Shown piece by piece: positions 4,797 to 45,132 of a DNA stretch of 64,000 nucleotides. Positions within the stretch are counted from its first letter, which is position 1; the number at the start of each line of letters is the position of its first letter. This stretch comes from a virus. Where the stretch lies: the IMG/VR virus record IMGVR_UViG_3300038415_000126, positions 1-64,000 of that record. One strand, given 5' to 3'. The translations under genes were made by a program, and so were the position numbers. A model generated the notes under the pieces. The model was given only the letters and a program-made list of their open reading frames with translations, made no database searches and was not told the DNA's origin.

Positions 4797-5187
4797 CCAC
4801 TTTATTCCAGTTGTCCCACTCCTCCTCGGTCACTACCAGAGCCCCAACCGGCAATGGGTTATTTCCTTCCCCATGGAGGTTCTCGCCATTGAGGCGGGTG
4901 ATGTGGCCTTCCGGATGGCGGATAAAGACCATGCATCCCGCGTGCGAAGACTTGCCCTGCCAACCATTCTTCTTTTCCGACCAAACGACCAAGTCGTTAT
5001 GTTCCAATGGTTTACCGCAAGTGGCGCAGCAGTAAGGGTGGATCTTGACCCGTCCGAGCTTGGGGTACTCGACATGGTCCTCCATATTCGACTTGGGCTT
5101 CTTTTTTATCTGGTGGCGACCGCAGACAATAGCTATGGTCAAGGCCACCAAAAATGAGATGATGAAACCAACTGCTGGGTGGTTCAT
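4771..5187 (-). CDS. membrane-anchored zinc-ribbon protein
   Basis: 138 aa. Residues 6-24 (VGFIISFLVALTIAIV) form one membrane span; then CCATCGKPL near 55 and a later Cys/His pair (SHAGC) suggest a treble-clef or ribbon. Overlaps the NAD kinase gene by 4 bases. Its stop codon lies in the promoter of the next gene. Confidence 0.7.
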   Translation of the reverse strand: MNHPAVGFIISFLVALTIAIVCGRHQIKKKPKSNMEDHVEYPKLGRVKIHPYCCATCGKPLEHNDLVVWSEKKNGWQGKSSHAGCMVFIRHPEGHITRLNGENLHGEGNNPLPVGALVVTEEEWDNWNKVVEIIPPRA

Positions 5188-6002
5188 GTCATAACCATGG
5201 TCAGGGGTTCTGGGGATACCCTGAAGTTGACTTGTTGTTCGTACTCGACGGGGAATGAGAGGAAGGGCCCGTCGAGGTACAGGATGCCGTCGCTGACCTT
5301 GGAGATGAGCTTGAAGCTCTTACCGCTTTGGAACCGGTTCAGAGTCTTCCCAGGGGCTCTGTAGGGTTCCCTGATGATGGCTTGAAGCTCCTTGGTCTCA
5401 GGTGGGTAGCTGGTCCCGCCTGCTGACCTCATGGCGCCGGTCGAGCCCGCTCCGGTCCCCACCCAGATCCCAGAGCACCCGTAGCGATCCTGTCCCAGGA
5501 TGAATTTGGTCATAGCGGCAGGGCAAACATGGGAGAATAGGGCCTCATTGAGGACTCGACTGCAGACTACCTCTCCGTCAATTGAGACCTGGAGTCGGGT
5601 GATCTTTTTGACTGAACTCTTGAAGTTCTTGGCAAGAAGAATTCCCCTGACGTCCTCTGCGCGAGCTGCGCAGAGGTAGCCAACCGAGGTCTTGGGATCT
5701 GAGTTGACTCCAAGGATGGGGATGCCCGCGGGGACCTTGTGGGAAGCCGCGAGGAGCGTCCCGTCACCGCCGACCGTGATGACAACCCTAGTATCCTCGG
5801 GAACCTTAAACTCCTTCTCTGGACCGTTGACCACTACGGCTCGGTACTTGAGTTTGCTCAGCTCGTGGAGGACCCTATCAACCGACTTCGAATGCCTTTG
5901 GTGTACCGCAAACGCGCGTTTTGCAGCCGAGGAGTCAGCCACATTGAACTTGAGCTGATCCCAAGTACTACGTTTTAGAATGACAATTGCCTGCTCTCTC
6001 AT
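5184..6002 (-). CDS. nadK: NAD kinase
   Basis: 272 aa, usual length for ATP-NAD kinase, which phosphorylates NAD to NADP. VVITVGGDGTLL (residues 73-84) contains the family-defining GGDGT; ILGVNSDP and a glycine-rich GTGAGSTGA segment later match the second conserved block. A phage-borne copy could raise NADPH for nucleotide reduction or change the NAD pool against NAD-depleting defences; that role is inference. Coupled to neighbours by ATGA overlaps. Confidence 0.92.
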   Translation of the reverse strand: MREQAIVILKRSTWDQLKFNVADSSAAKRAFAVHQRHSKSVDRVLHELSKLKYRAVVVNGPEKEFKVPEDTRVVITVGGDGTLLAASHKVPAGIPILGVNSDPKTSVGYLCAARAEDVRGILLAKNFKSSVKKITRLQVSIDGEVVCSRVLNEALFSHVCPAAMTKFILGQDRYGCSGIWVGTGAGSTGAMRSAGGTSYPPETKELQAIIREPYRAPGKTLNRFQSGKSFKLISKVSDGILYLDGPFLSFPVEYEQQVNFRVSPEPLTMVMT

Positions 6003-24237: not shown

Positions 24238-25176
24238 ATGGAAAAGTACCCATCAATCGTTGAGTTGTCAAAGTGTCCTGACATCTTTTCAGTCAAACAG
24301 GTGGTCGCAACCGAGAAGTTGCACGGATCGAACTTCAGGCTGTTCTTTCCACTCGGAATGAAGAGTATCGAGGAGATTGGGTTTGGCTCGCGTGACATTG
24401 AGTATGGTGTCGGGGATCAGAAGTTTCCCCTCGGGTCGATGCTAAATAAGTTCAAGGCCCAAACCGATCTGTTGACTCGCATGGTGGAGGTCATCCAGTC
24501 CTACGGGTTCTCCGAGACCACCGTCTTTGGTGAGGCCTACGGTCCTGGTATCAAGGCCAAGGGGGTTAGATACAGCACCGGACAGGAGCCGCTCTTCAGA
24601 GCCTTCGATATTATGGTGGCCCAGAACTTCGTCACCTACGACCTGTTCTGCGAGATTTGTGACAAGATGGGGGTACCCAGGGTTCACGAGGTTTGGCGCG
24701 GGGAGCCAACCCAGGCCAACTTCGATGCTCTCCTAGAGAAGCCCAGTACCGAGGGCCTACTCAATGGGTTCGGGGACGACAACATCGCCGAGGGGGTAGT
24801 CCTCCGGTCTAACCCTCTCCTCAGGGATGTATTCGGGGAGTGGCTTATCTGCAAGCACAAGTGCGCAAAGTTTGCCGAGGTGGCCACGGCCGCTGTGGAA
24901 AAGATCCCTCGGGGGCCATCGGCGGCCGATGACTTTGCAGCCAGGTATGTCACCGAAGGTCGAGTCACTAACGCCATCGGTCGACTCAATGACTCCGCAG
25001 TTGAGTTGACCAGTACCATGAGGGACATGCCAATCCTTCTGGGGGCGGTCTGCGCCGACCTCGCTAAGGACTTCCCTGAGGATATGGTCGAACTAGGAAT
25101 CACTGAGCAGTCCCTCAAAGGTAACGTATCTCGGATACTTGGCCCGATGTACAGGGGTATGTTGAGCAAAGAGTAG
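24238..25176 (+). CDS. RNA ligase, Rnl2-like
   Basis: 312 aa. EKLHGSNFRLF holds the nucleotidyl-transferase motif I with Lys27 as the adenylated residue; VFGEAYGPG (motif III/IIIa region), EGVVLRS (motif IV) and ICKHKCAKF (motif V) follow in order. This is the Rnl2 group of ATP-dependent RNA ligases, which seal nicked RNA. Together with the kinase at 43892 and Thg1-like enzyme at 44362 it would make a tRNA repair set. DNA ligase is unlikely because no OB-fold domain signature follows. Confidence 0.9.
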   Translation: MEKYPSIVELSKCPDIFSVKQVVATEKLHGSNFRLFFPLGMKSIEEIGFGSRDIEYGVGDQKFPLGSMLNKFKAQTDLLTRMVEVIQSYGFSETTVFGEAYGPGIKAKGVRYSTGQEPLFRAFDIMVAQNFVTYDLFCEICDKMGVPRVHEVWRGEPTQANFDALLEKPSTEGLLNGFGDDNIAEGVVLRSNPLLRDVFGEWLICKHKCAKFAEVATAAVEKIPRGPSAADDFAARYVTEGRVTNAIGRLNDSAVELTSTMRDMPILLGAVCADLAKDFPEDMVELGITEQSLKGNVSRILGPMYRGMLSKE

Positions 25177-27665: not shown

Positions 27666-29639
27666 ATGCGTATGCCTAGTACAAAGCCAAAAGCTGAAGT
27701 AGACCCCGTTGTAGCCGCCACTTCACTATGGTTAGTTGAGGAACTCAGGAATCGAGGGGTTGAAAAGCCTTATGTCAACAAGACCTCTAAGGGGTGGCAG
27801 GTCAAGGATGGGAACAAGCTCATTGGTCGCCCTCGCTCTGAATGGATGGATGAGCGATCACAAGACGCTATTGAGTGTTGTTTCCGTATCCCAGGATCAG
27901 TGACAATCGAACTCGAACCTTGGAGCTGGCATGCTAAAACAGAGGGCGAAGCCGCTGAAGGTCAGCAAGTAGCCCACCAGAAATGGGTGAAGAAGCACAA
28001 GAAAAAGAAGCCTAAGAAGGGCGCAGAGGCGACAGCTACTCAAGATGAAGCCAAGCTCAAGGAGGAGCCGGTAGATCACTACCCAGAACTATTCGAGGTG
28101 ATCCAGCTGGTCACTAAAGGGCAACGAGCTGTAGTCAGATCACTCCTCAAAGAGGAAGGTAGAGAGCCATACCCAGTTTTGGCTGAGGCTATTGGCGCTA
28201 CGGTAGAGCGCGTCCAACTCAAGACCTCGAAGGGCAAGAAGGCGAAAGAGGGTGCTACTCGTAACAAGTTAAGTGACAACCCTCTTTCGGGGAGCTTGAC
28301 CGCTTTTGCTTCTAAACAAGCCTCAGATAAGATGAGGACCTGGCTTAAGAAAGAGGCGGAACAATCTCCACCTTGGTTCAAGGCTAAGAGCCTCCCATTA
28401 CCTAGAGAGTGCTTTGACTTAGTGCTATGCGGACGCGATCTCGATGTAATCCTTACTCTACGAGCAGCTGTCAATGGTCGGTCACCCCACTTGACAGGAA
28501 AAGCTGTTGCAAGAGGCAACTCTCAATGGTCAACCCTTCACAAGATCCTGAAGCCGGGAAGTGAGTACACGATAGGGGGTGCTCGCCTGGTATGGGATGA
28601 TGACCGTTATCGGTTCCAACTTAAGGTGTCCTACTCCTACCCAAGACCAAGCACAAAAGAAGGCGTGGACACTCTTGTAGTCTGCCCTGGTCTGGATTCA
28701 ATCCTACGCCTGTGGGCTAGTAGTGGTCGCGGTGTTGGTAGGGTAGACGACAGCAAGTCTTACTTTGCTCATCGGCTTCAATTCGAAGGTCGGCGGACAC
28801 CTCATAAGCCCACAGCCAAGTCATTGAAACAGCTCAAGGCGTTAGGGAAAGATCCCAACGAGGTATTTATCTACAATGTGAACCAAGATACCCTTCTTCA
28901 GAAGAAGTTGGCTTTCGACGCCAGACGGGGTAGTATGGCTCAACACCTGAACCATCAAGGACGTGGGGCTCGTGGCCACGGTCGAAATCGATTTTTGAGG
29001 ATTAAAACGGAGGTCTCAGAAAAGGAGGCCTTGTTCACCAAGAGCTATTGTGAGCAACAAGCGTCGAGAGTTGCCAAGGTGGCGAGCGGGATGATCTTGA
29101 CTCACGAAGGTTGGGTTCAGAATCGAGAGCCCTATGCTGAGGTGTTACTTCACGATTGGAGCACCCACCTCGCGCATCACCCGGACAAGCGCATTGAGAA
29201 GATCCTAAGACAGTTCCCAAGTGCACTACTCCGTGAGAAGATTATCTGGGCCTTGACCAAGGCTGGAATCAACTACCGAGTACTCAAGGTTGGAACTTCC
29301 CTATGCCCATCTTGCTTGAAAGGGAAGATGGAATTTGACAAGATCTCCGGTAACCACGTTTGCAGCCACGATGACTGTAAACAAGAAGCTCCAAAGGAAT
29401 TCTTGACCGCTTGGGCCACCTTCAGAGCTGGAACGCCGAGCAAGGTGTATGACTACGATGCGGTGAGTGAAAGCTTCCGGAAGGTGATCCGAGACAGCAG
29501 AGCCCGTAAGAATCAAACAACTAACCTGGAAACTTCCGAATCGGAAGCACCTTCAATTGAAGTCCAAGCACCTACCAGAAAGACCACTAGAGATGCAAAC
29601 GCAACTAGAAGAGGTACGTCTCAAGAATCTCATCCGTGA
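27666..29639 (+). CDS. compact type V (Cas12/TnpB-fold) effector, RuvC probably inactive
   Basis: 657 aa. A Lys-rich linker (107-118) follows a small N-terminal domain. The C-terminal half follows TnpB/Cas12 order: strand TLVVCPGLDSILRLWASS (336-352) at RuvC-I, Arg-rich bridge helix GHGRNRFLRIKTEVSEKEAL (437-456), AEVLLHDWSTH (491-501) at RuvC-II, then LLREKIIWALTKAGINYRVL leading to a zinc ribbon (C547, C550, C566, C571) and KEFLTAWATF at RuvC-III. Positional reading gives Gly342 for the first Asp (Asp344 is two residues off), His496 for the Glu, and no Asp in 572-585. I infer guided DNA binding without cutting. Starts at ATG 27666 or 27672. It sits between a tracrRNA-like segment and the arrays. 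Subtype not assigned. Confidence 0.85.
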   Translation: MRMPSTKPKAEVDPVVAATSLWLVEELRNRGVEKPYVNKTSKGWQVKDGNKLIGRPRSEWMDERSQDAIECCFRIPGSVTIELEPWSWHAKTEGEAAEGQQVAHQKWVKKHKKKKPKKGAEATATQDEAKLKEEPVDHYPELFEVIQLVTKGQRAVVRSLLKEEGREPYPVLAEAIGATVERVQLKTSKGKKAKEGATRNKLSDNPLSGSLTAFASKQASDKMRTWLKKEAEQSPPWFKAKSLPLPRECFDLVLCGRDLDVILTLRAAVNGRSPHLTGKAVARGNSQWSTLHKILKPGSEYTIGGARLVWDDDRYRFQLKVSYSYPRPSTKEGVDTLVVCPGLDSILRLWASSGRGVGRVDDSKSYFAHRLQFEGRRTPHKPTAKSLKQLKALGKDPNEVFIYNVNQDTLLQKKLAFDARRGSMAQHLNHQGRGARGHGRNRFLRIKTEVSEKEALFTKSYCEQQASRVAKVASGMILTHEGWVQNREPYAEVLLHDWSTHLAHHPDKRIEKILRQFPSALLREKIIWALTKAGINYRVLKVGTSLCPSCLKGKMEFDKISGNHVCSHDDCKQEAPKEFLTAWATFRAGTPSKVYDYDAVSESFRKVIRDSRARKNQTTNLETSESEAPSIEVQAPTRKTTRDANATRRGTSQESHP

Positions 29640-30294: not shown

Positions 30295-30304
30295 TAACAT
30301 ATCT

Positions 30305-30347
30305 TGCGAGCGGTTCGGTGATAGACTAGACCCTGTACCCGCTCGCA
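30305..30347 (+). terminator. hairpin after companion gene
   Basis: TGCGAGCGG (30305-30313) pairs perfectly with CCGCTCGCA (30339-30347), followed by TTTC. Weak terminator or processing hairpin separating the protein genes from the array leader. Confidence 0.45.
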
Positions 30348-30552
30348 TTTCACTCTCTTCCACTAGAGAGCCTGTTCTCTGAAAATCTAGCATCTGATTC
30401 CCACGTAGTCAGAAGTAACCAGGTGGTTTGTATCACCTATATGGTTCACTGATCTACCGGGAGTCAGGTAGGACTCGTGCTGAGACGGTTATGCAGACCC
30501 TCTCGCATGTAGTATTGTAAGTGTATAGAACCACTGGGGATCTCATACTGAG
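30348..30552 (+). promoter_or_regulatory. CRISPR leader with short anti-repeat
   Basis: About 200 non-coding bases before the first repeat. GAACCACTGGGG (30528-30539) is complementary, with one mismatch, to the repeat's 5' half (CCTCAGTGGTTC) and can fold back on the first repeat. No TTGAGA/TAATAC promoter is visible here. Confidence 0.45.
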
Positions 30553-31447
30553 GCCTCAGTGGTTCATTGAGTGTATGGGGATTGGAGCTACCCGAGCACG
30601 CCGTCCCACTTGGCCTCAGTGGTTCATTGAGTGTATGGGGATTGGAGCTAGTTAGGACACGATTCGACGGGGTCGGGGCAGACACGCCTCAGTGGTTCAT
30701 TGAGTGTATGGGGATTGGAGCCGCAACAGCACTTGGCAATGGCGGCTTGAACTGTGCCTCAGTGGTTCATTGAGTGTATGGGGATTGGAGCCGGCTGATC
30801 CACCTTACAGGTAGCCTCGGGGCTCCTGAGCCTCAGTGGTTCATTGAGTGTATGGGGATTGGAGCGGGGTTCGAGAGCGCGAGGAACTCGGGAACTCGTA
30901 TCGCCTCAGTGGTTCATTGAGTGTATGGGGATTGGAGCTGGTTGTTCCGCATTATCGGTGCGACCGGGTCAGGCAAGCCTCAGTGGTTCATTGAGTGTAT
31001 GGGGATTGGAGCTGATTGAACAGGACCACCATGATATTAGAGCCAACGCCTCAGTGGTTCATTGAGTGTATGGGGATTGGAGCCAGATGAAATAGGCGAA
31101 TGGCCCCACCGAGGTGAAGCCAGCCTCAGTGGTTCATTGAGTGTATGGGGATTGGAGCGCAACTGGCTAGTGATTTCCTCGTCGCATTCGGGATGCCTCA
31201 GTGGTTCATTGAGTGTATGGGGATTGGAGCTCAACGATGACGATGAGTTTCGCATACGAGTGATCGTGCCTCAGTGGTTCATTGAGTGTATGGGGATTGG
31301 AGCTCCTCCGAAAGTCACCTCGATTGAGAAGGCAATCGTGGCCTCAGTGGTTCATTGAGTGTATGGGGATTGGAGCTCGTACTGTACCCTGCAGACAGCG
31401 ACATCCGTTGGGCCTCAGTGGTTCATTGAGTGTATGGGGATTGGAGC
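30553..31447 (+). CRISPR. CRISPR array 1: 13 identical 36-bp repeats
   Basis: Repeats start at 30553, 30613, 30686, 30756, 30830, 30903, 30977, 31048, 31123, 31195, 31268, 31341 and 31412. Each is 36 bp, beginning GCCTCAGTGG and ending GGGGATTGGAGC, with no variation seen. Twelve enclosed spacers: first 24 bp, the others 34-39 bp; a 13th spacer (31448-31482) leads into array 2. All spacers differ. Several read as open protein-coding frames; spacer 6 (30939-30976) reads WLFRIIGATGSG, a Walker A-like stretch. Confidence 0.98.
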
Positions 31448-31482
31448 GATACCGTGGGCATCACAATGGAAGTGCTTCGGAC

Positions 31483-32015
31483 GTGAGAACCTAGGATCAA
31501 GTGTATGGGTGTTGGAGGTCAGGGTGGATGGCCGTCGACGCCACTGCCATGTTTCAACCGATGATTGAATGTATGGGTGTTGGAGGGAGGTTGAGCTACG
31601 CGCGTTAGTTCCGTCGCTAGAATCACGCGGGAACCTAGAATCAAATGTATGGGTGTTGGGGAAATGTCGTTGGTCAGCAATGCCCGGAGGTCTGAGACGT
31701 GGAAACCTGTAATAAAGTGTATGGGTGTTGGAGGAATCCACTGTTTGAACCTATTAAAGGCGCAGCGGATGTTACTAAATGGTCGAGTGTATGGGTGTTG
31801 GAGCACGTACAAGAAAGCTTGGACGACGCGGCGTAGAATGTGGGAACCTGGGATCAATTGTGAGCGTTGGAGGGTGATCATGCCTCTGGTCCAACCTCGA
31901 CCTATCAGGGTGGGAACCTAGAATCAAGTGTATGGGTATTGGAGCACCTCCGTCTCAGGAATAGCTGATGAAACTGCGACGTGGGAACCTAGAATCAAAT
32001 GTATGGGTATTGGAG
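31483..32015 (+). CRISPR. CRISPR array 2: 8 variable repeats of a second type
   Basis: Copies at 31483, 31551, 31627, 31699, 31769, 31840, 31910 and 31981, 33-35 bp each, spacers 33-41 bp, in continuous phase with array 1. Consensus starts GTGGGAACCTAGAATCA and ends TGTATGGGTGTTGGAG. The last 16 bases resemble array 1 (TGTATGGGGATTGGAG) but the first half is unrelated. Copies 31551 and 31769 are most diverged; 31840 lacks 2 bases. A last spacer may follow 32015. Confidence 0.9.
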
Positions 32016-32071
32016 ACGGTCGGCTCCCGGAAGATGTCCGGTGGTAACTCTCTTATACTTGAGGTGCAATA

Positions 32072-32821: not shown

Positions 32822-33607
32822 CTATCTTGTCAATGGTGCTTGGCATACTAACTCTCTCGAACAGACTGGGCAGTTGAGTGTCTGAGGGCGAAGCTTCAGC
32901 TCTTGGAACGACATGTACCTGGCATCGAAGAGTATCATCCGACCCTCCAGGGACGTCCCGATCCTCAGAAGGTGCTTGAGCACCTCGGTCGCTTGGATCA
33001 TACCGATCATCCCAGGAACAACGCCCAGTACCCCACCAACACCTGGCGGCCTTCCGCTCCCGTGAGTGATGTCCAGGTCTGGGTACAGGCATCGGTAGCA
33101 GGCGCCACCGGGGACAAACTTCGTCACCTGGCCCTCATACCTCGCGACGGCCCCATGGATCCAAGGGATCTTGTACTTCACACAGGCTTCGTTGATGAGG
33201 TATCGGGTAGCCAGGTTGTCACAGGCATCGACGACGATGTCCCACCCAGTCCCAAAGACCCAATCGACTCTTCCATCCGTCAACCGATCTGGATATTCTA
33301 CGACGAGTATCTCTGAATTATGATGACTGACTGCTGCTTCTGCCATCCCAACTTTGAGATGCCCAAGTTGTGTTTCAGAGTAGAGGACTTGCCTGGGGAG
33401 GTTCGAGAGGCTCACCCTGTCATCATCGACGATACCCAGCACCCCAACCCCAGCTCCCGCCAGGTAGAGCGCCACTGGTGACCCGAGTCCGCCAGCGCCC
33501 ACGATGAGGACCTCGCTCTTGAGGAGGCGCTCTTGTCCCGCCTCTCCCACCTCGGGTAACTGAATCTGTCGCTCGTATCGTATTAATTGGTCAGAGGTTA
33601 GGGCCAT
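32822..33607 (-). CDS. E1-like ThiF/MoeB adenylyltransferase
   Basis: 261 aa. YERQIQLPEVGEAGQERL start and VLIVGAGGLGSPVALYLAGAGVG (residues 33-55, ATP site) are classic MoeB/ThiF/HesA. Structural zinc Cys pairs are present (C168/C171, C244/C247). The Cys usually found before GVLG is absent (RPPGVGGVLG), so it can adenylate a C-terminus but may not form the usual thioester. Overlaps the metallopeptidase gene. Could activate a sulfur carrier or a ubiquitin-like protein. Confidence 0.92.
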   Translation of the reverse strand: MALTSDQLIRYERQIQLPEVGEAGQERLLKSEVLIVGAGGLGSPVALYLAGAGVGVLGIVDDDRVSLSNLPRQVLYSETQLGHLKVGMAEAAVSHHNSEILVVEYPDRLTDGRVDWVFGTGWDIVVDACDNLATRYLINEACVKYKIPWIHGAVARYEGQVTKFVPGGACYRCLYPDLDITHGSGRPPGVGGVLGVVPGMIGMIQATEVLKHLLRIGTSLEGRMILFDARYMSFQELKLRPQTLNCPVCSRELVCQAPLTR

Positions 33608-44361: not shown

Positions 44362-45132
44362 TCACTCATCCGATCTAAGCACACCCAGACCGAGACACAA
44401 CTTAGTCACGAGACTAGCATATTCTGGCCCACGAGGGAGGTCTCGGTTTACATAGACCCTTCTCCTCAAAGCCATACTCGTCTCGTTCTTCTTGGGGTTG
44501 AACCCGTTCTTCTCGAAGTTCTCCCAGTAAATCCCGCAACCCCGCTTTTGCCATGCAGGAACGTTATTGAAGTTGATCCCGTGCTTGTGCAAGAGCTCGT
44601 TCTTCTCACTGAAGGTCTTGCCCTCAAGAGCTTTCGTCGCTTCCAAGGCGCTCTTGCCCTTGCCTCGAAGCGTCCAGTAGCACCACCCATTGAGGCAGCA
44701 CCGGGAAGCATCCGACTGCCTCCATCTGAAGTAGTCGACCACGTCATCATTCGAAACCCCAACCCACACGCGACTATCAAAGTGAGCCGGATAACTCAGT
44801 TTGACTGAGAAAATAGAACTTGCCACGCCCGCGGACACCGAAACCAGCTTCTCGATCTCTCGACCGAATAAGTCGGTATCACGGGGTAAGAGAACGCTGA
44901 TCTCATCCGACTCCGTGAAGGCGTAGAGCCCACCCAGCTCGACTAGTAGGGCAAGAGCCGTCGCCACCATGTAGTCGTGGAACTTGTGGTCAAAGGGGTG
45001 CTCAAACACCTTGGTCAATCGAGTGAAGCTCCGTCCATCAACGCGAATAACCATCCAAGCACCGGGAAGGGCCGCCATCGAGTGGTAACACTCAAGTCGT
45101 CGCATCCTGTCTTCAAGGCTATCGGACTTCAT
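44362..45132 (-). CDS. Thg1-like 3'-5' RNA polymerase
   Basis: 256 aa. VIRVDGRSFTRLTK (Asp32) and FTESDEISVLL (Asp76, Glu77) are the metal-binding signatures of tRNA-His guanylyltransferase and its bacterial Thg1-like relatives; CCLNGWCYW and FSEKNELLHKHGINFNNVP match later conserved blocks. Relatives add nucleotides to RNA 5' ends in the 3'-5' direction, including repair of 5'-truncated tRNAs. Next to a kinase, so a tRNA repair pair is likely. Confidence 0.92.
   Translation of the reverse strand: MKSDSLEDRMRRLECYHSMAALPGAWMVIRVDGRSFTRLTKVFEHPFDHKFHDYMVATALALLVELGGLYAFTESDEISVLLPRDTDLFGREIEKLVSVSAGVASSIFSVKLSYPAHFDSRVWVGVSNDDVVDYFRWRQSDASRCCLNGWCYWTLRGKGKSALEATKALEGKTFSEKNELLHKHGINFNNVPAWQKRGCGIYWENFEKNGFNPKKNETSMALRRRVYVNRDLPRGPEYASLVTKLCLGLGVLRSDE

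What the first reader, a model, noticed from the sequence alone, without database searches (positions are those of the whole stretch)
30553..32015. Two repeat types fused in one array, sharing only the 3' handle half
Thirteen invariant 36-bp repeats run straight into eight repeats of a different consensus with CRISPR spacing. Only the 3' part (TGTATGGG..TTGGAG) is common. Simple decay of old repeats would not give a new shared 5' half (GTGGGAACCTAGAATCA). In type V systems the 3' half forms the crRNA handle, so both could load the same effector, or the second array may be an older or borrowed system.
Basis: seen in the sequence. Interest (0 to 1): 0.85.

Follow-up and report, generated by a model that had tools for sequence, protein, structure and literature searches.

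The report
Phage CRISPR array with changed repeats
A large-phage genome fragment carries one CRISPR array whose older repeats differ in their first half but keep the 17-letter end expected to be the guide-RNA handle, beside a Cas12f-like protein whose DNA-cutting residues are all replaced, so the phage probably uses it to block genes rather than cut DNA.

Summary
Thirteen identical 36-nt repeats (30553-31447) run, in unbroken ~71-nt phase, into eight variable repeats (31483-32016). The two types agree at 15/17 positions in the 3' part and at chance level (5/18) in the 5' half. The shared 3' part matches the 17-nt repeat-derived tag of Cas12f crRNA. Six of the eight units share the second 5' half, and two (31551, 31769) do not.

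I read it as one array in time layers: an older, mutated block and a younger, uniform one, with the handle kept by selection. The gene beside it (27666-29639) is a very divergent relative of Cas12f/V-U3. Aligned to relatives, its RuvC triad D-E-D reads C-H-E, so it is predicted nuclease-dead.

Two other phages, Rctr197k and an IMG/VR contig, have the same set: an effector lacking the first RuvC aspartate, a helical partner protein, an array, and a 9-mer (CCGCTCGCA) between gene and array (0 of 5000 shuffles). The gene-array gap in the window and Rctr197k folds unusually well, suggesting a tracrRNA.

The likely function is RNA-guided DNA binding that silences target genes. No spacer target was found and nothing was tested experimentally. 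Nuclease-dead phage Cas14/Cas12f has precedent; this lineage and the layered repeat switch look new.

The parts
27666..29639 (+). Effector P0001, 657 aa, divergent Cas12f/V-U3-like protein; RuvC positions C340, H496, E578 where Cas12f has D, E, D; zinc-finger CPSC (547) ... CSHDDC; extra N-terminal ~140 aa
29557..30294 (+). Partner protein P0002, up to 245 aa (start may be the ATG at 29593), predicted all-helical with a C-terminal coiled coil; homologue of Rctr197k_118
   Evidence: model pLDDT 44, low
30295..30552 (+). Non-coding gap between genes and array: structured RNA (z about -3; -5 with the first repeat), putative tracrRNA/leader; holds CCGCTCGCA at 30339-30347
30528..30539 (+). GAACCACTGGGG, 11/12 complementary to the 5' half of the block-1 repeat (candidate anti-repeat; suggestive only, 4 of 150 background stretches do as well)
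30553..31447 (+). Array block 1: 13 identical 36-nt repeats GCCTCAGTGGTTCATTGAGTGTATGGGGATTGGAGC with 12 spacers
31448..31482 (+). Spacer at the junction of the two repeat types, 35 nt, in phase
31483..32016 (+). Array block 2: 8 variable units, consensus GTGGGAACCTAGRATCAAGTGTATGGGTRTTGGAG, 7 spacers; layered 3' variants GGGTG (31483-31804), GAGCG (31840), GGGTA (31910-32016)
31551..31586 (+). Unit b2, intermediate between the two 5' halves (11/18 identical to each)
30939..30976 (+). Spacer 6; reads WLFRIIGATGSGK in frame 1 (last codon completed by me with the commonest ending), a Walker A motif, so its target is probably a P-loop ATPase gene

Best explanation
This is a phage-encoded type V CRISPR system of the Cas12f/V-U3 kind whose effector can probably bind but not cut DNA. 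One array serves it. New spacers were added at the leader end, each copying the leader-proximal repeat. At some point that repeat's 5' half changed, so later units are of one uniform new type while older units keep the old type and have gathered mutations. The 3' part, about 17 nt, stayed the same because it is the part of the crRNA the effector holds; the 5' half is trimmed away or only meets the leader/tracr RNA. Both blocks would therefore load the same effector, which with its partner protein would sit on target DNA and block transcription of rival phage, plasmid or host genes. Shown by sequence: array anatomy, differing conservation of the two halves, loss of the catalytic residues, recurrence of the gene set in three phages, the conserved non-coding motif. 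Inferred: growth order, handle use, tracrRNA, silencing.
For: Continuous phase and a spacer at the junction. 3' part 15/17 alike, 5' half at chance. More variation in the 5' half than the 3' part within block 2; block 1 invariant, 0/468 against 33/245. 3' variants in block 2 lie in ordered layers rather than scattered (p = 0.036). Cas12f crRNA keeps 17 repeat-derived nt (PMC8053092). Effector family: P0003 and P0004 hit PADLOC Cas12u3 at 3e-34 and 3e-40; a profile of all three effectors hits solved IS605 OrfB-type/Cas12f chains at about 3e-32. Catalytic columns: D/E/D in P0006 (Cas12f-like, canonical), N/E/D in P0004, H/E/D in P0003, C/H/E in P0001. Same gene set in L052 and Rctr197k. Shared 9-mer CCGCTCGCA, 0 of 5000 shuffles. 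Structured gap, z -3.0 here and -3.1 in Rctr197k against background -0.2 +/- 1.1, minimum -2.5. Nuclease-dead Cas12m and phage 'dCas14' are precedents (PMC10442227, PMC7162821).
Against: No transcript data. No spacer target found in the phage or plasmid collections or in its own genome. Six of eight old units share a 5' half unrelated to the new one, so the switch was either sudden or its intermediates are lost; only one unit looks intermediate (6 of 8 departures towards the new type, p = 0.02). P0001 alone matches Cas12 models weakly (2e-4) and its structure prediction failed (pLDDT 32). No clear anti-repeat to the handle was found. The L052 gap is short and not unusually structured. No Cas1 in the 98.5-kb record, so spacer uptake would need host help.
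Confidence: 0.62

Rival explanations
1. Recombination joined two arrays from related phages. Each had its own repeat, both fitted to the same effector family, so only the handle is shared. The old block is borrowed rather than the ancestor of the new one.
For: The 5' halves are unrelated (5/18). The leader holds complements of the new 5' half (GAACCACTGGGG at 30528, ACTGAG at the array edge) but none as good for the old one (8/12), as if leader and repeat came together. An active-looking Cas12f phage, MMB025, also has two repeat types in one locus, more alike at the end I take as 3' (12/17) than elsewhere (8/21).
Against: Period is unbroken across the junction; one unit (31551) looks intermediate; no donor array was found. 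The leader complement is only marginally above background (4/150).
Confidence: 0.25
2. Block 2 is a dead, decaying trailer: degenerate repeats at the leader-distal end that are no longer used.
For: Block 2 is variable, at the far end, and one unit (31840) has a broken handle.
Against: Decay should hit both halves alike; the 3' part is conserved significantly better. Units 31551 and 31769 have changed 5' halves but near-perfect handles. Decay cannot create a 5' half shared by six units.
Confidence: 0.1
3. The two repeat types serve different effectors, the second one encoded by the host or by a missing part of the phage.
For: The record is a fragment (98.5 kb), so another effector could be missing.
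Against: The handle is shared; no second homologue of P0001 in the record; no host genome with a relative found.
Confidence: 0.03

Closest known systems
Type V-F / V-U3 (Cas12f, Cas14; IS605 OrfB-type)
   Same: P0003 and P0004 match Cas12u3/Cas12f models over most of their length; RuvC and zinc-finger order; 17-nt repeat-derived handle; non-coding structured RNA beside the gene
   Different: First RuvC aspartate lost in all three, whole triad changed in P0001; partner protein; P0001 has about 140 extra N-terminal residues; anti-repeat not demonstrated
Phage 'dCas14' of huge phages (Al-Shayeb 2020, PMC7162821)
   Same: Phage-borne Cas14/Cas12f lacking a catalytic residue, proposed to repress host genes
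   Different: Whether it is the same lineage could not be checked; one residue missing there, three changed here; partner protein and mixed-repeat array not mentioned in the passages read
Type V-M (Cas12m)
   Same: Non-canonical RuvC triad (H-D-D in Cas12m2); works by binding and silencing
   Different: Not the best sequence match; Cas12m2 uses a single crRNA
Alicyclobacillus phage MMB025 locus (L068)
   Same: Phage Cas12f-like gene with two repeat types nearby
   Different: Effector keeps the D-E-D motifs; repeats in two small separate arrays; likeness of the two repeats is weak

Membership tests
CRISPR array | Regular direct repeats with unique spacers of similar length | tested here: met
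   21 units, spacers mostly 32-40 nt, one of 24
Type V effector (Cas12) | RuvC-like domain with zinc-finger insertion, gene next to array | tested here: met
   for P0001 alone only weak, secured through Rctr197k protein P0003 (E 8e-22)
Type V-F (Cas12f) | Sequence match to Cas12f models | tested here: inconclusive
   P0003 and P0004 clearly, P0001 only 2e-3 to 2e-4
Type V-F (Cas12f) | Intact D-E-D RuvC triad and DNA cleavage | tested here: not met
   C340/H496/E578 in P0001; cleavage itself not tested
Type V-F (Cas12f) | tracrRNA with anti-repeat pairing to the crRNA handle | tested here: inconclusive
   Structured gap and shared 9-mer, but no anti-repeat to the handle above background
Type V-M (Cas12m) | Best sequence match to Cas12m (V-U1) | tested here: not met
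   Cas12u3/Cas12f models score far better than Cas12u1 for P0003 and P0004
Nuclease-dead silencing effector | Binds target DNA and blocks transcription without cutting | not testable with these tools
   Inferred from the lost catalytic residues

The most novel reading that the evidence does not exclude
A distinct phage-borne, nuclease-dead branch of Cas12f with an obligatory helical partner and its own guide-side RNA, in which the repeat's 5' half co-evolves with the leader RNA and can be swapped as a unit while the 17-nt handle stays fixed. One array then holds two generations of guides usable by one silencing effector, a fossil record of repeat switching.
Probability: 0.3. Interest if true: 0.78.

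Novelty: new variant of a known kind. Interest (0 to 1): 0.62.

Why it matters
CRISPR repeats are normally uniform within an array. A natural array that keeps only the 3' handle across two repeat types maps by itself which half of the repeat the effector needs, and shows in what order repeats can change. The effector branch, lacking the first catalytic residue in all three phages found and paired with a small protein, points to phages using CRISPR for gene silencing rather than cutting. It would also be a small natural programmable DNA binder.

Tried and rejected
Direct scans with P0001, P0003 and the ThiF gene next to the array found no relatives in viral contigs; two profile scans of genome contigs found none. 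A degenerate DNA pattern for the GA[RKH]GHGR[NT]R motif found L052; its AGR-codon version found nothing more. The handle pattern in viral contigs gave 37 stretches with one match each, as chance would. Spacers: no self-match clearly above shuffles, no convincing outside match. Anti-repeat by duplex energy: not above random stretches. Hairpins in single repeats: not better than shuffles, so the hairpin in the block-1 5' half was not used as evidence. Rfam: no match at gathering score, one chance hit at E 2.8. Structure predictions of P0001 (pLDDT 32) and P0002 (44) were too poor for a fold search. The L072, L069 and L047 relatives are TnpB/Cas12f-like with the canonical first RuvC aspartate and are not members; no array was found next to L069. 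A weak sigma-factor hit in P0001 (E 0.07) was set aside as chance.

Full report
What is there. The window is part of a 98,513-base virus record, apparently a fragment of a large phage. At 30553-32016 lies one CRISPR array of 21 units. The first thirteen repeats are identical, GCCTCAGTGGTTCATTGAGTGTATGGGGATTGGAGC. The last eight vary around GTGGGAACCTAGRATCAAGTGTATGGGTRTTGGAG. The spacing of about 71 nt runs on across the junction, with a unique 35-nt spacer between the two kinds. The longest exact stretch common to both repeats is about 10 nt, too short for an assembler to have joined two arrays by mistake (inference).

How alike the two types are. In the 5' 18 positions they agree at 5, which shuffling reaches in 45% of cases; in positions 19-35 they agree at 15 of 17. 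Inside block 2 the 5' half is more variable than the 3' part (27/126 against 6/119 differences, p = 1.5e-4, leaving out the indel-bearing unit; p = 0.016 with it), and block 1 has none in 468. Units are not independent, so these p-values are guides only. The 3' variants in block 2 lie in order along the array: GGGTA in the last two units, GGGTG in the first five, with a damaged unit between (p = 0.036). This is what repeated copying of a slowly changing leader-end repeat would leave. One unit, at 31551, has a 5' half equally close to both types (11/18 each; 6 of its 8 departures from the old type are towards the new, p = 0.02).

Why the 3' part. In Cas12f the crRNA in the solved complex carries 17 repeat-derived nucleotides (PMC8053092). 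The shared stretch TGTATGGGnnTTGGAG(C) has that length and sits at that end. So the part conserved across both repeat types is the part a Cas12f-like effector is expected to hold.

The effector. P0001 (27666-29639) gives no Pfam or PHROG match and only weak PADLOC Cas12u3/Cas12f hits. It is related to P0003 of virus Rctr197k (8e-22), which with P0004 of L052 clearly belongs to the Cas12u3/Cas12f group; a profile of all three reaches solved IS605 OrfB-type/Cas12f chains at about 3e-32. At the three RuvC catalytic columns the canonical Cas12f-like P0006 has D, E, D. P0004 has N, E, D; P0003 has H, E, D; P0001 has C, H, E. The RuvC-III column depends on a divergent alignment and is the least certain. 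Loss of the first aspartate in all three suggests a lineage that binds without cutting. Cas12m does so with an H-D-D site (PMC10442227), and a phage Cas14 lacking a catalytic residue was proposed to repress host genes (PMC7162821).

The same set elsewhere. In L052 the effector is followed by a 207-aa protein and twelve repeats with 71-nt period. In Rctr197k a 205-aa protein precedes the effector, and an array follows. The window's P0002 matches the Rctr197k protein (7e-7 over 189 aa); the L052 protein resembles them weakly (hhalign E 0.0019, probability 14%) and sits in the same place as P0002. All three gene-array gaps contain CCGCTCGCA; no triple of shuffled gaps out of 5000 shared any 9-mer. 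The gap folds better than expected in the window (z about -3, and -5 when the first repeat is included) and in Rctr197k (z -3.1); 84 other stretches averaged -0.2 with a minimum of -2.5. L052 has a gap of only 70 nt that is not unusually structured. A tracrRNA is therefore likely but not shown: no anti-repeat to the handle stands out. A 12-nt complement of the new 5' half lies 13 nt before the array (30528-30539; 4 of 150 background stretches do as well).

How it probably works. Guides from both blocks are cut out of one transcript, each with the common handle, and loaded on P0001, perhaps with the gap RNA. The complex finds matching DNA and, being unable to cut, blocks transcription. Spacer 6 reads as a Walker A motif, which suggests a P-loop ATPase gene as one target. 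No other hint of a target was found. With no Cas1 in the record, new spacers would come through host machinery or recombination; almost all phage CRISPR systems in one survey lacked spacer acquisition genes (PMC7162821).

Verdict. I favour one layered array with a change of the leader-end repeat (0.62), with recombination between two related arrays next (0.25). The larger finding is the predicted dead effector with its partner and RNA motif in three phages.

Noticed in passing
L009:5485-6888 and 4817-5434 (KX853510.1): The Rctr197k 'transposase-like protein' is a Cas12f-like CRISPR effector lacking the first RuvC aspartate, and its neighbour Rctr197k_118 is a likely partner protein.
   Followed up: yes
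L068:2469-2581 and 2773-2959 (PV686781.1): Alicyclobacillus phage MMB025 has a Cas12f-like gene annotated 'transposase' with two repeat types near it; one CRISPR overlaps an annotated CDS that may not be a gene.
   Followed up: partly
window 30373-30390 and L052:8755-8772: A second stretch after CCGCTCGCA looks shared between window and L052 (GTTCTCTGAAAATCTAGC / GTTCTTTGAAAATTCAGC, 15/18 by eye).
   Followed up: no
window 44362-45132: Gene for a tRNA-His guanylyltransferase-like protein (PHROG 2.5e-39) although no tRNA genes were found in the record.
   Followed up: no
window 24238-25176 and 32822-33607: RNA ligase and a ThiF-family protein lie on either side of the CRISPR region.
   Followed up: no
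window 30589-30612: The first spacer is only 24 nt, shorter than all others.
   Followed up: no
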